The notes beneath the pieces were generated by a model, which was not told where the DNA came from, did not search any database, and saw nothing but the letters and a program-made list of their open reading frames with translations. This document shows, piece by piece, positions 28,537 to 33,124 of a DNA stretch of 64,000 nucleotides. Numbering within the stretch: position 1 is the stretch's first letter; each line of letters opens with the position of its first letter. Origin of the DNA: Egibacter rhizosphaerae (GTDB taxonomy: Bacteria > Actinomycetota > Nitriliruptoria > Euzebyales > Egibacteraceae); assembly GCF_004322855.1 (NCBI RefSeq), contig NZ_CP036402.1, positions 3,038,001 through 3,102,000 of the forward strand, read 5' to 3'. The position numbers and the translations under genes were made by a program.

Positions 28537-28540
<4 letters not shown>
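27638..28540 (-). CDS. LytTR-family response regulator
   Basis: Cytoplasmic transcription factor of a LytS/LytR-type two-component system, 300 aa. Receiver domain residues 17-135: acidic pocket VDDE, phosphoacceptor Asp68 in VLLDIRMPGG, and TTAYGD and LVKPFD with the conserved Thr and Lys. A Gly/Pro/Glu-rich linker (about 135-195) joins it to a C-terminal LytTR DNA-binding domain (IVYAEAARGYSALKL, FFRTHRSYLVNLDYVREL). Its ATG overlaps the kinase stop by four bases (ATGA), so the two are translationally coupled. Two symporter pairs and acs lie within 10 kb, suggesting control of acetate or short-chain acid uptake; that is inference from context. Confidence 0.93.
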
Positions 28541-29844
<1,304 letters not shown>

Positions 29845-29922
29845 TGGTGCACCATCCTCGTGTCGGTGGTCATGGGACTGCCGATGCACCCCGGGTGCCT
29901 GCCGGACCACCGCCTGGGCCGC

Positions 29923-29939
29923 TGGCCCTTCGAGGGCCA
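29923..29939. repeat. 7-bp palindromic stem upstream of the kinase gene
   Basis: TGGCCCT and AGGGCCA flank TCG. A second small stem, GCACC-CCG-GGTGC, lies at 29886-29898, and a near copy of it at 30041-30054 is just before the transposase gene. These may be part of the IS110 left end or of its target; see findings. Confidence 0.5.
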
Positions 29940-29985
29940 CGATGAGTTTCGCGGGGTCCGGCGGCCCGGGACGTGCCAAGCGGCT

Positions 29986-31330
29986 ACAGGGCTGAGCGCC
30001 GCAGAGCGCCGATCAGTGAGCGACCGACGAGCACGTCCCAGCACCACCGGGTGCCTACCAGCTGGGCGAACAGCCAGGAGGCACACATGCAGCATGACAC
30101 GACCACGTCCACCGGAGGAGTCGACTGGGCGACCGACACCAACGAGCAGTGCGTCATCGCCGCTGACGGCGCGGTGCTGCTGCGCGCGAACACCACCCAT
30201 GACGCTGCCGGGATCCGCCGGCTGGTCAGCGCCTTCCTCGAGCACGGGGTCGACCGGGTCGCGATCGAACGGCCCGACGGGCCGGTCGTCGAGGCGCTGA
30301 TCGCCGCCGGAGTCGAGGTTGTCGTCGTGACGCCGCGGCAGGTGAAGAACTTGCGGGACCGCTACGGCGCCGCGGGCAACAAGGACGACCGCTTCGACGC
30401 CTACGTCCTCGCCGATGTGCTGCGCACCGACAGCCACCGGCTCGTCTGCCTGACCCCCGACAGCGCGCAGACCCTCGCGCTGCGCTCGGCCGTGCGCGCC
30501 CGCACCGACCTGGTCGAAGCGCGGGTGGCGATCTGCAACCAGCTGCGCGCTCACCTGCGCACGGTGTTCCCCGCCGCCGTCGGCCTGTTCGCTGACCTCG
30601 ACTCGGCCGTGAGCCTGGCGTTTTTGTCCCGCTTCCCCAACGTCGACAAGGCCGCGTGGTTGTCTCACAAGCGGCTGGGCTCGTGGCTGGCCAAGCACGG
30701 CTACAGCGGGCGCACCCCCACCCAGACGCTGCTCGACCGGCTCGACGCCGGCCCCGAAGGGCTCACCGGCCAGGTGGCCGCTGCCGCAGCCCACACCACC
30801 CTCGCCTACGTCAAAACCCTGCAGGCGCTGCGCACACAGATCAGCGCGCTCGAGACCCAGATCCGCGAGCAGCTCGCCGGCCACCCCGACGCGGCGATCT
30901 TCACGAGCCTGCCCCGCTCGGGGCAGGTCCGCGCCGCCAAGCTGCTGGTCGAGATCGGCGACGCCCGCGGCCGCTTCCCCACCGACGCGTCGCTGGCCGC
31001 GCTCGCCGGCGCCGCACCCTCCACCCGACAGTCCGGACGCCACCACGTCGTGTCGTTCCGCTGGGCCTGCGACCACAAGCTCCGCGACGCCGTCACCGAC
31101 TTCGCCGCCGACAGCCGCCACGCCAGCCCCTGGGCCGCCGCCATCTACGACCGCCACCGCGCCGCCGGCAAGACCCACCAACACGCCACCCGCATCCTCG
31201 CCCGCGCCTGGCTGCGCATCATCTGGCGCTGCTGGCAAGACCACACCGCCTACGACCCCACCCGACACGGCGGCAACCAACCGTTCCTGCCCCCCAGCCA
31301 AGAACTTCCAGCGGTAGCTTGACACAGGGC
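29986..31330 (+). mobile_element. IS110-family insertion sequence (approximate ends)
   Basis: An element of about 1.34 kb carrying one DEDD transposase. The ends have no inverted repeats, as expected for IS110. The best candidate boundaries are two copies of ACAGGGC, at 29986-29992 and 31324-31330, which would be the duplicated core. TTGACA at 31319-31324 sits exactly at the right end, as expected for IS110 circles that rebuild a promoter at the joined ends. The noncoding left end (29993-30086) is short. IS110 elements encode a bridge RNA in such a region; I can see stems but cannot prove it. Confidence 0.72.
30087..31322 (+). CDS. IS110-family RNA-guided transposase/recombinase
   Basis: A 411 aa recombinase. 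The RuvC-like DEDD residues are visible: GVDWATD (Asp13), AIERPDG (Glu61) and KDDRFDAYVLAD (Asp101/Asp104). The C-terminal domain has a Lys/Arg-rich LPRSGQVRAAKLLVEIGD and the catalytic serine region AALAGAAPSTRQSGRHH. A coiled segment (LQALRTQISALETQIREQL) joins them. AGGAGG at 30076-30081 precedes the ATG. The frame is full length and undamaged. The stop lies only a few bases before the right end of the element and 11 bases before the convergent symporter's stop. Confidence 0.95.
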   Translation: MQHDTTTSTGGVDWATDTNEQCVIAADGAVLLRANTTHDAAGIRRLVSAFLEHGVDRVAIERPDGPVVEALIAAGVEVVVVTPRQVKNLRDRYGAAGNKDDRFDAYVLADVLRTDSHRLVCLTPDSAQTLALRSAVRARTDLVEARVAICNQLRAHLRTVFPAAVGLFADLDSAVSLAFLSRFPNVDKAAWLSHKRLGSWLAKHGYSGRTPTQTLLDRLDAGPEGLTGQVAAAAAHTTLAYVKTLQALRTQISALETQIREQLAGHPDAAIFTSLPRSGQVRAAKLLVEIGDARGRFPTDASLAALAGAAPSTRQSGRHHVVSFRWACDHKLRDAVTDFAADSRHASPWAAAIYDRHRAAGKTHQHATRILARAWLRIIWRCWQDHTAYDPTRHGGNQPFLPPSQELPAVA

Positions 31331-31333
31331 ATC

Positions 31334-33124
31334 TCATCGGCGCCCGTTCCTCGGCGTTCGTGGTTCGTCCGGATCGGCCAGCCCGCGGATCGTGAGCTCG
31401 GCCAGCCGCTCGGCCTGCCGGTCGGCAGCGGTCCCGTGCATCCGGACCCAGGTGCGGTCGAGGTCGACCGGGGTCGGGGTGACCTTCGACACCACGACCG
31501 TCACGAGCATCGCGGCGGGAGCCCCCAGCACGGCCGGTGCGAGCAGGACCCCCGCGACGTCGCCCTCGCCGGCCACGCCGACGACGCCGGCGAGGAAGGC
31601 GCCGATCGCGACCACGCTGCCGGTGACCATGCCCGCGACGGCTCCAGCGGCGGTGGTGCGGCGCCACCAGATCGCGAGGAGGAGCACCGGGGTGAGGGCG
31701 CTGCCGGCCAGCGTGAACGCCCAGGTCACCATCGTCGCGACGAGCGAGGGGAACAGGCCCGACAGCTCGGCGGGGCGCAGCGTGACGGCCACCGCGGCGC
31801 CGATCGCCGCGACGACGACCACCGCGCCCCGACCGGCGCGCATCGCCTGGCGCTGGGTCGCGCGCGGGTTGAGGTGGCGCTCGTAGACGTCGTGGCCCCA
31901 CGAGGCGGCCCCGGCGAGCAGCAGTCCGGCGATGGTCGACATCACCGCGACGAGTGCGGCGGCCGCGAGGACGCCGAGCCCCGCGCCTCCCGCGGCCAGC
32001 CGCCCGAGCGCGAGGAGCGCGTGTTCGGGCACCCGTAGCACGCCGTCGACGGTGAGCTCGGCCAGCCACGGAGTACCGTCGGCGGCATCGGCGATCGCCG
32101 CGCGCGCCGCGACGCCGAGCAGGACCGCGAGCGCGTAGAACAAGCCGGCCGCGCCGAGCACCCAGACGGTGGTGAGGCGCGCGGCACGCCCCGTCGGGCT
32201 CGTGAAGAACCGGTTCATCACGTGCGGCAGGCCGGCGGTGCCGAGGATGAGCGTGATGACCAGGGCCAGCTGGCTCGCCGGCCCGTAGCGCGCGCCCGGC
32301 TGGTCGAAGCGCGCCGCGCCACCGTCGATGCGGTCGGGCACCGCTCGCAGCTCCCAGCCCTGGCGTCCCTCCACCGCGCCGCCGGCAGTGGCCCCGGCCT
32401 CCTCCCCGCTGCCGTCCTCGACCGGTACCGGGTTCGCGAGCGGGGTCTCCGAGACCTCCGCGACCGCGTCCGGGTAGCTGAAGCCGTCCGCCACCGTCAC
32501 GCCCGTCAACCACAGCAGCACGAGCAGCAGGAAGGCGAACTGCACCGCCTGCGTCCACGTGGCCCCACGCATGCCCCCGAGACCCACGAGCGCGGTGATG
32601 GCGGCGGTCGAGACGAGCACGCCGGTCACGTACGGCGAGAGCCCTCCGATCCCGGCGCCGACGAGCAGCTCCCAGGTGATCCCGCTGGCCACCGCCTGCG
32701 GCACGAGGTAGCTCACGATGACGAGCTGGACGACGAGCACCGCGGCCAGGCGCACCCGTTCGCTCCCGAGCCGGCGGCCCAGGAAGTCGGGCAGGCTGAA
32801 CTCGCCGAAGCGGCGCAGCGGCGCGGCGACGAAGAGGACGACCGGCACGAACCCGGCCGCGAACCCGGTCGCGTACCAGATCCCGTCGAGGCCCGCCGCG
32901 TAGACGGCGGCGGCGACGCCGAGGAACGACGCCGCGCTGAAGTAGTCCCCGCAGATCGCGCTCGCGTTGGTGGCGACGCCGACGCGCTGGCCCGCGAGGT
33001 AGAAGTCGAGGGTGGAGGCCCGACGCGGGCGGGCGGCGACGGCGAGGAGCACCGCGACCATGAGCGCCAGCGCGAGCGTCGCCATCCCGCTCGCGGTGAC
33101 GGGCGCGGTGGCCGCGGCGATCAT
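31334..33124 (-). CDS. Sodium/solute symporter, ActP-like (acetate)
   Basis: A 596 aa SSS-family transporter with about 13 helices, probably importing acetate or a related monocarboxylate with Na+ or H+. FYLAGQRVGVATNASAICGDYFSAASFLGVAAAVY near the N-terminus, [61 protein letters not shown] and ATMVTWAFTLAGSALTPVLLLAIWWRRTT are the ActP/SSS signatures. A hydrophilic loop (about 225-280) is longer than usual. The start overlaps the stop of the upstream DUF485-like gene by four bases. An IS110 element now lies 3' of it, separating it from the LytS/LytR genes. Confidence 0.9.
   Translation of the reverse strand: MIAAATAPVTASGMATLALALMVAVLLAVAARPRRASTLDFYLAGQRVGVATNASAICGDYFSAASFLGVAAAVYAAGLDGIWYATGFAAGFVPVVLFVAAPLRRFGEFSLPDFLGRRLGSERVRLAAVLVVQLVIVSYLVPQAVASGITWELLVGAGIGGLSPYVTGVLVSTAAITALVGLGGMRGATWTQAVQFAFLLLVLLWLTGVTVADGFSYPDAVAEVSETPLANPVPVEDGSGEEAGATAGGAVEGRQGWELRAVPDRIDGGAARFDQPGARYGPASQLALVITLILGTAGLPHVMNRFFTSPTGRAARLTTVWVLGAAGLFYALAVLLGVAARAAIADAADGTPWLAELTVDGVLRVPEHALLALGRLAAGGAGLGVLAAAALVAVMSTIAGLLLAGAASWGHDVYERHLNPRATQRQAMRAGRGAVVVVAAIGAAVAVTLRPAELSGLFPSLVATMVTWAFTLAGSALTPVLLLAIWWRRTTAAGAVAGMVTGSVVAIGAFLAGVVGVAGEGDVAGVLLAPAVLGAPAAMLVTVVVSKVTPTPVDLDRTWVRMHGTAADRQAERLAELTIRGLADPDEPRTPRNGRR

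What the first reader, a model, noticed from the sequence alone, without database searches (positions are those of the whole stretch)
29880..30086. Possible bridge-RNA region at the left end of the IS110 element
IS110 recombinases use a bridge RNA transcribed from a noncoding end. The sequence before this transposase has repeated small stems: GCACC-CCG-GGTGC at 29886 and a near copy GCACC-ACCG-GGTGC at 30041, each followed by CCT(G/A)CC, plus TGGCCCT-TCG-AGGGCCA at 29923. A near-repeat inside versus outside the presumed left boundary could be a guide and its matching target. The noncoding left end would be only about 95 bases if the ACAGGGC boundary is right, short for a bridge RNA, so the boundary may lie further left.
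Basis: partly seen in the sequence, partly recalled or inferred. Interest (0 to 1): 0.55.

Follow-up and report, generated by a model that had tools for sequence, protein, structure and literature searches.

The report
Guide RNA of an operon-inserting transposon
The stretch encodes a predicted guide RNA that steers a small jumping gene (IS110 family) into the exact spot where one gene ends and the next begins, and the element's reverse strand appears to be kept free of stop signals so that the interrupted operon can still be translated across it.

Summary
The bridge-RNA reading holds, but its details change. A second copy in the same genome shows that the element runs from the core CT at 29840 to the core CT at 31333, so its noncoding left end is about 245 nt, not 95. 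That end folds as a bridge RNA (5' stem-loop, target loop, donor loop). In 44 related elements 34 pairs were tested and 20 have compensatory changes. The guides match target and donor position by position: right-target positions 44/44, 40/44 and 42/44, against 18.5-24.0 expected. The GCACC near-repeats are hairpins, not guide and target.

The target is an ATGA stop/start overlap between a symporter gene and a histidine-kinase gene. In 26 of 33 non-redundant relatives aimed at RTGAG, the antisense frame opened by the host's own start codon stays open through the whole element (about 1.5 kb) and ends in a TGA overlapping a new GTG start for the downstream gene. Stop codons there are depleted (8 against about 47 expected). 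The precedent is IS900's hed. I read it as an RNA-guided element that inserts as a translatable cistron. Expression is untested.

The parts
29840..29841 (+). left core dinucleotide CT (left target - core - right donor junction: GGTGCCG-CT-CACTGG)
   Evidence: junction comparison with copy 2 and 44 relatives; L056 sits in a tandem repeat whose intact units read GGGCGG-CTCA-CGCC
29842..30086 (+). noncoding left end (LE), about 245 nt
   Evidence: between core and transposase ATG
29850..29855 (+). -10-like hexamer CACCAT; pairs with the right-end TTGACA only when the ends are joined in the circle
   Evidence: exact TTGACA in 42 of 44; -10-like hexamer 17 or 18 nt downstream, taken as best of four spacings
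29862..29885 (+). bridge RNA 5' stem-loop (10-bp stem)
   Evidence: equivalent stems with different sequence in most relatives
29899..29964 (+). target-binding loop (TBL)
   Evidence: covarying stem, helix 2: 11 of 14 pairs with double-sided changes
29917..29923 (+). left target guide GGCCGCT (matches left target GCCG + core CT)
29940..29946 (+). right target guide CGATGAG (reverse complement of CT-CATCG)
   Evidence: register test r1 44/44, r2 40/44, r3 42/44
29947..29948 (+). TBL handshake guide position (TT); window d7 is T, so this copy is one of the 2 of 44 exceptions
   Evidence: d7 42/44
29968..30039 (+). donor-binding loop (DBL)
   Evidence: helix 4: 6 of 7 pairs with double-sided changes
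   Evidence: C/T position covaries with right end 44/44, expected 28.5
30014..30020 (+). right donor guide CAGTGAG (reverse complement of CT-CACTG of LE)
30087..31322 (+). IS110 transposase, 411 aa; D13, E61, D101, D104, S316 aligned with IS621 D11, E60, D102, D105, S241
31319..31324 (+). TTGACA -35 box at the right end
31324..31332 (+). left donor ACAGGGC + AT at the right end
31333..31334 (+). right core dinucleotide CT, followed by right target CATCGGCG
29841..31337 (-). hed-like antisense ORF (498 aa + stop): starts at the host ATG, ends in TGA overlapping the GTG at the left junction
28537..29844 (-). downstream host gene: sensor histidine kinase, now starting at GTG supplied by the element end
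31334..33124 (-). upstream host gene: sodium:solute symporter, own TGA stop kept at the right junction

Best explanation
29862 to about 30039 encodes the bridge RNA of an IS110-group insertion sequence (29840-31334). Its target-binding loop carries GCCGCT and CGATGAG, which pair with the two halves of the target GCCG-CT-CATCG. Its donor-binding loop carries ACAGGGCT and CAGTGAG, which pair with the joined ends of the element. The RNA would be transcribed in the circular form, from a promoter made by the right-end TTGACA and a left-end -10. Shown here in silico: ends, fold, covariation of fold, guide-target and guide-donor matching, handshake pairing, promoter parts, catalytic residues. Inferred: transcription, binding, recombination. 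The target read by this RNA is a stop/start overlap (ATGAGCGG) of two co-oriented host genes. The antisense strand of the element is kept open in the frame of the host start codon and ends in a TGA that overlaps a new GTG start, so both overlaps persist after insertion. Inferred: ribosomes coming from the upstream gene can translate across the element and re-initiate on the downstream gene.
For: Second copy and remnant fix the ends. Fold covariation in 44 relatives. Annotation-free permutation test: right target z = 9.0, 0 of 20,000; left target z = 4.4, 1 of 20,000; wrong-strand controls and the control 20 bp further out null. Register test: r1 44/44, r2 40/44, r3 42/44, donor d7 42/44, left-donor C/T 44/44, left target t7 35/44 and t5 21/44. 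TTGACA 42 of 44. PDB relatives IS621 and ISCro4. Antisense ORF: length 2 mod 3 in 28 of 33; full hed reading in 26 of 33; 8 antisense-stop codons in 30 transposases against 46.9 expected from host usage and 36 in 10 of the CTCAG-type; left end open in the hed frame 29 of 33 against 3 and 2 of 33 in the other frames. New elements from other genomes: 3 of 3 RTGAG-type with both junctions fit (L129, L150, L151). Symporter/kinase junction without the element in relatives: 11 of 17 have an NTGA overlap in the kinase frame.
Against: No RNA or recombination data. The window copy itself breaks the handshake pair at d7 (2 of 44 exceptions). DBL-handshake covariation at t7 and t6 is not significant (2210 and 12099 of 20,000 shuffles). 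Left-target positions t3-t0 are not significant, nor are right-target r4 and r5. The left-donor match over 10 nt, tested as a block, is not significant because that region hardly varies. Elements are related, so permutations overstate independence; in disjoint nearest-neighbour pairs the two usually change together but not always (L088/L041: guide differs, target does not; L052/L051: the reverse). The hed product has no Pfam match, no PDB relative and no predicted fold (mean pLDDT 34). Not every insertion lies between two convincing genes: both flanks pass in 9 of 33, neither in 4 of 33, many flanks are short or unclear. Rfam has no matching family.
Confidence: 0.9

Rival explanations
1. The stems are a transcription terminator or a riboregulator of the transposase gene, not a bridge RNA.
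For: Hairpins lie just upstream of the transposase; the hairpin at 30041 is close to its ribosome-binding region.
Against: Two internal loops matching target and donor on opposite strands, covarying with DNA outside the RNA, are not expected of a terminator or leader; no matching Rfam family.
Confidence: 0.03
2. One reading: the GCACC near-repeats inside and outside a boundary at ACAGGGC are guide and target.
For: The two near-repeats exist.
Against: Copy 2 carries both inside the element; the covarying guides lie elsewhere.
Confidence: 0.01
3. The open antisense frame is a by-product of GC-rich codon usage and carries no meaning.
For: In codon register, antisense stops arise only from TTA, CTA and TCA, rare in GC-rich genes; the hed product shows no predicted fold.
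Against: Host usage predicts 46.9 such codons in 30 transposases, 8 seen; CTCAG-type relatives have 3.6 per gene against 0.27; the noncoding left end is open in that frame only (29 of 33 against 5 of 66); left ends of 15 different lengths share one residue mod 3.
Confidence: 0.12
4. Hed is a real folded antisense protein with its own function, and the target site was chosen to express it (the view in the title of the 1997 IS900 paper).
For: Conserved full-length frame (26 sequences in A3); title of Doran 1997 in the reference lists seen.
Against: No Pfam hit, no PDB relative, mean pLDDT 34; its conservation follows that of the overlapping transposase. The model used only 26 sequences of an overlapping frame, so it is weak evidence.
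Confidence: 0.15

Closest known systems
IS621 bridge RNA (IS110 group; PMC11208160, PMC11208158)
   Same: DEDD recombinase with the same catalytic residues; bridge RNA in the left end with 5' stem-loop, TBL, DBL; CT core; left guides read like the top strand, right guides are its reverse complement; handshake base after the right target guide pairs with the donor base before the core; promoter split over the joined ends.
   Different: Target is a gene-junction sequence RTGAG; the left donor guide seems to stop 1-2 nt before the core instead of including it; extra GCACC hairpins; antisense reading frame kept open.
IS900 and its hed gene (Mycobacterium avium subsp. paratuberculosis; PMC8141618, Doran 1997 by title)
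   Same: IS110-family element of about 1.45 kb with an antisense ORF spanning the element without its own start or ribosome-binding site, aimed at translation-initiation sequences, rarely disrupting genes.
   Different: Reported IS900 motif CATGNNNNNNTCTCCTT differs from CCG-CT-CATCG; the passages I saw do not link it to a bridge RNA or to a re-created stop/start overlap.
IS1111 group / seekRNA elements (PMC11187229)
   Same: Same transposase superfamily and RNA-guided target choice.
   Different: Guide RNA lies in the right end there (PMC11208160, section 12); here the right end is only 13 nt from stop codon to core and the left end about 245 nt.
ISCro4 recombinase (PDB 9t56)
   Same: Homologous recombinase domain by profile search.
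   Different: Only the protein was compared.

Membership tests
IS110 family, IS110 group | DEDD (RuvC-like) plus Transposase_20 domains | tested here: met
   PF01548 E 3.9e-33, PF02371 E 2.5e-14; catalytic residues aligned to IS621
IS110 family, IS110 group | left noncoding end longer than right | tested here: met
   247 against 13 nt, core to gene
IS110 family, IS110 group | bridge RNA in the left end with 5' stem-loop, TBL and DBL | tested here: met
IS110 family, IS110 group | guides complementary to target on opposite strands | tested here: met
IS110 family, IS110 group | guides complementary to donor, core included in all four pairings | tested here: inconclusive
   right donor guide CAGTG-AG includes the core; left donor guide ACAGGGCT ends 1-2 nt before the core CT
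IS110 family, IS110 group | CT core shared by both junctions | tested here: met
   with a junction search motif that itself contains CTCA; the own-genome remnant reads GTCA at its right end and relative L154 appears to use GT
IS110 family, IS110 group | promoter formed on circularisation | tested here: met
   TTGACA 42 of 44, -10-like hexamer at 17 or 18 nt; sequence only
IS110 family, IS110 group | circular intermediate, RNA expression, RNA-protein binding | not testable with these tools
   needs experiment
IS1111 group | guide RNA in a long right end | tested here: not met
   right end 13 nt; RNA in left end
IS1111 group | subterminal inverted repeats of 7-17 bp | not tested
   no dedicated search was made
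IS900-type hed element | antisense ORF spanning the element, start supplied by host | tested here: met
IS900-type hed element | target CATGNNNNNNTCTCCTT | tested here: not met
   window target GCCG-CT-CATCG

The most novel reading that the evidence does not exclude
A lineage of RNA-guided transposons in actinobacteria is built as an operon adaptor. Its guide RNA aims at the RTGA overlap where translation passes from one gene to the next. Its reverse strand is selected to be a stop-free cistron, and its ends rebuild an RTGA overlap on each side, with a Shine-Dalgarno-like sequence before the new GTG, so the operon stays translated and insertion costs little. The same operon transcript is antisense to the transposase and the bridge RNA, which would couple host expression to repression of the element.
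Probability: 0.5. Interest if true: 0.78.

Novelty: new variant of a known kind. Interest (0 to 1): 0.64.

Why it matters
It gives an actinobacterial lineage of bridge RNAs with guides, donor, handshake positions and targets worked out from sequence, useful as natural alternatives to IS621 in GC-rich hosts. It also offers an explanation for the antisense hed gene described in IS900: an open frame may be the price of inserting at translationally coupled junctions without silencing the downstream gene. That makes a testable link between how an RNA guide evolves and how harmful an insertion is.

Tried and rejected
Rejected: ACAGGGC as the left boundary (copy 2). Core CA in an early reading of the two copies (note): dropped because the relatives' right ends read GGGCTA/GGGCTT/GGGCAA before CTCA and L056 sits in a tandem repeat that fixes CTCA as the shared stretch. 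A reading in which the two bases before CTCA belong to the target: dropped in favour of handshake pairing, which PMC11208158 describes for the same position. Folding energy as evidence: weak. Rfam: no match at gathering or at E <= 1. Block test of the left donor: not significant. DBL handshake covariation: not significant. Hed as a folded protein: no support. Searches around other genomes for more copies gave few new elements. Junctions were found by motifs containing CTCACTG and GA[CT]A[CT]AGGGC..CTCA. Of 78 elements given to (76 loci, the window, copy 2), 72 had the donor-loop motif, 67 a left and 57 a right junction. 50 had both with enough flank, 6 were dropped as redundant (C2, L020, L056, L058, L059, L085), 44 remained. 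Four of the 80 loci (L061, L071, L079, L095) were not in that script; L061 and L071 were looked at later. One search left out L075, L091 and L093. The guide parser misread L017 (it took a motif in the left guide; its right guide is CGATGAG). In some searches most of the further loci examined lacked recognised junctions; L127 and L132 turned out to be copies of L017 and L069 and were not counted as new.

Full report
What was checked. The protein after them is an IS110 recombinase (PF01548 and PF02371) related by profile to the solved IS621 and ISCro4 recombinases. From the printed alignment, D13, E61, D101, D104 and S316 fall on IS621 D11, E60, D102, D105 and S241 (the chain numbering carries an offset of two).

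Where the element ends. The genome holds a second copy (G000:C1:1276654-1278163, minus) that is alike from 29833 to 31342 with six differences, and an internally deleted remnant (G000:C1:534495-534813). Outside that block the flanks are unrelated. Left junctions read GCCG-CTCA-CTGG, right junctions ACAGGGC-AT-CTCA-TCG. In relative L056 the element lies in a tandem repeat whose other units read GGGCGG-CTCA-CGCC, so the shared stretch is CTCA and the core, by analogy with IS621, its CT. The element is therefore 29840-31334, with a left end of about 245 nt.

The RNA. One scan of genome contigs gave 80 relatives. Seventy-eight elements (76 of these loci, the window and copy 2) were examined; 44 non-redundant ones with both junctions were aligned. 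RNAalifold finds two long stems with internal loops; 20 of 34 pairs have double-sided changes, 96.6% of cells pair, 0 of 500 shuffles reach any measure, and slid partners pair 32-40%. A 5' stem-loop precedes them at 29862-29885 and forms with other sequences in most relatives. This is the order described for the IS621 bridge RNA (PMC11208160, outline, abstract, sections 6 and 12 and found passages read; PMC11208158, passages read).

The guides. Without using any annotation of guides, each target half was compared with each element's loop: cognate pairs match better than shuffled pairs for the right target (z = 9.0, 0 of 20,000) and the left target (z = 4.4, 1 of 20,000), while wrong-strand controls and a control 20 bp further out do not (44 and 52 elements). 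With the register fixed by the alignment, the right target guide pairs with target positions r1 44/44, r2 40/44 and r3 42/44 (expected 19.2, 18.5, 24.0), the base after it pairs with donor d7 in 42/44 (expected 24.2; the window is one exception), and a C/T position of the left donor guide follows the right end in 44/44 (expected 28.5). Left target t7 and t5 are significant, t6 and t4 more weakly, t3-t0 not; right-target r4 and r5 and the DBL handshake are not. In disjoint nearest-neighbour pairs guide and target mostly change together, with exceptions. In the window the target guides are GCCGCT (ending at 29923) and CGATGAG (29940-29946); the donor guides are ACAGGGCT (29986) and CAGTGAG (30014). 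The base at 29919, one of six differences between the two copies, lies in the left target guide.

Expression signals. TTGACA ends at the A of the right-end ACAGGGC in 42 of 44; joined to the left end, a -10-like hexamer follows 17 or 18 nt later. This is the split promoter reported for IS621. It predicts a start near 29862 and an RNA of about 178 nt; neither has been measured.

What the target is. Read on the minus strand, the inferred empty site is CGCCGATGAGCGGCACC: the symporter's TGA overlaps the kinase's ATG. In relatives without the element, 17 symporter/kinase junctions could be examined and 11 have an NTGA overlap in the kinase frame. After insertion the symporter keeps its stop at 31334 and the kinase starts at a GTG (29844) made by the element's end. 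Over the 33 RTGAG-type elements, both flanks pass a simple gene test in 9, neither in 4, and the rest are mixed, unclear or too short, so the gene-junction target is a tendency, not a rule.

The antisense frame. The host start codon kept at the right junction opens a minus-strand frame. In 26 of 33 non-redundant RTGAG-type elements this frame runs through the whole element and ends in a TGA overlapping the GTG at the left junction. Lengths are 2 mod 3 in 28 of 33 (binomial p about 1.5e-9, ignoring relatedness), and 29 of 33 left ends, of 15 different lengths, share one residue mod 3. The noncoding left end is open in that frame in 29 of 33, in the other two frames in 3 and 2 of 33. Codons that would be antisense stops number 8 in 30 transposases; host genes predict 46.9; ten CTCAG-type relatives, which lack the start-codon target, carry 36. 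The host rate rests on 18 flanking genes. The left end also offers a Shine-Dalgarno-like sequence before the GTG in the RTGAG-type (mean duplex energy -8.25 against -1.03 kcal/mol in the CTCAG-type). Three new RTGAG-type elements with both junctions from other genomes or contigs (L129, L150, L151) all fit; the CTCAG-type L155 does not. The CTCAG-type is mostly one clade, so that contrast counts as few independent events. The hed product shows no family, no PDB relative and no predicted fold, which favours a readable linker over a functional protein, weakly.

Known and not known. Bridge RNAs in IS110 left ends are known (PMC11208160; PMC11187229, abstract in the listing and one passage seen). 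An antisense ORF without its own start, and a taste for initiation signals, are known for IS900 (PMC8141618 passages; Doran 1997 seen only as a title). PMC2775157 and PMC12500396 were looked at by passages and added nothing decisive. I found no paper joining the two: searches, in an open-access library only. The window's element is a new member of the IS110 group; the lineage's operon-fitting architecture is the variant.

Noticed in passing
L063, L069, L073, L076, L078, L081-L083, L085: A sister subgroup has targets of the form ..TGA-NC-CT-CAGCC, often with a TGA on each strand: its guides look aimed at convergent gene ends rather than start codons, and its antisense frame is full of stops.
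   Followed up: partly
L015:4501-4815 (G000:C1:534495-534813): A third, internally deleted copy of the element in the same genome keeps both ends at an ATGAGCGG-like site (right end GTCA instead of CTCA).
   Followed up: partly
L152, L153, L154 (IMG/VR contigs): More distant relatives (47-49% identity) carry a similar left end; L154 seems to use a GT core and a right guide GCATGAC for target GTCATGAC, and all three transposases have no antisense-stop codon.
   Followed up: partly
L029, L038, L093: The first part of the left end (LE start plus 5' stem-loop) appears duplicated in tandem in these elements.
   Followed up: no
window 29919: The two full copies in this genome differ by C/T inside the left target guide, so one may be drifting in target specificity.
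   Followed up: no
L056:2650-2760: The element is inserted in a short tandem repeat, giving a natural view of the empty site.
   Followed up: partly
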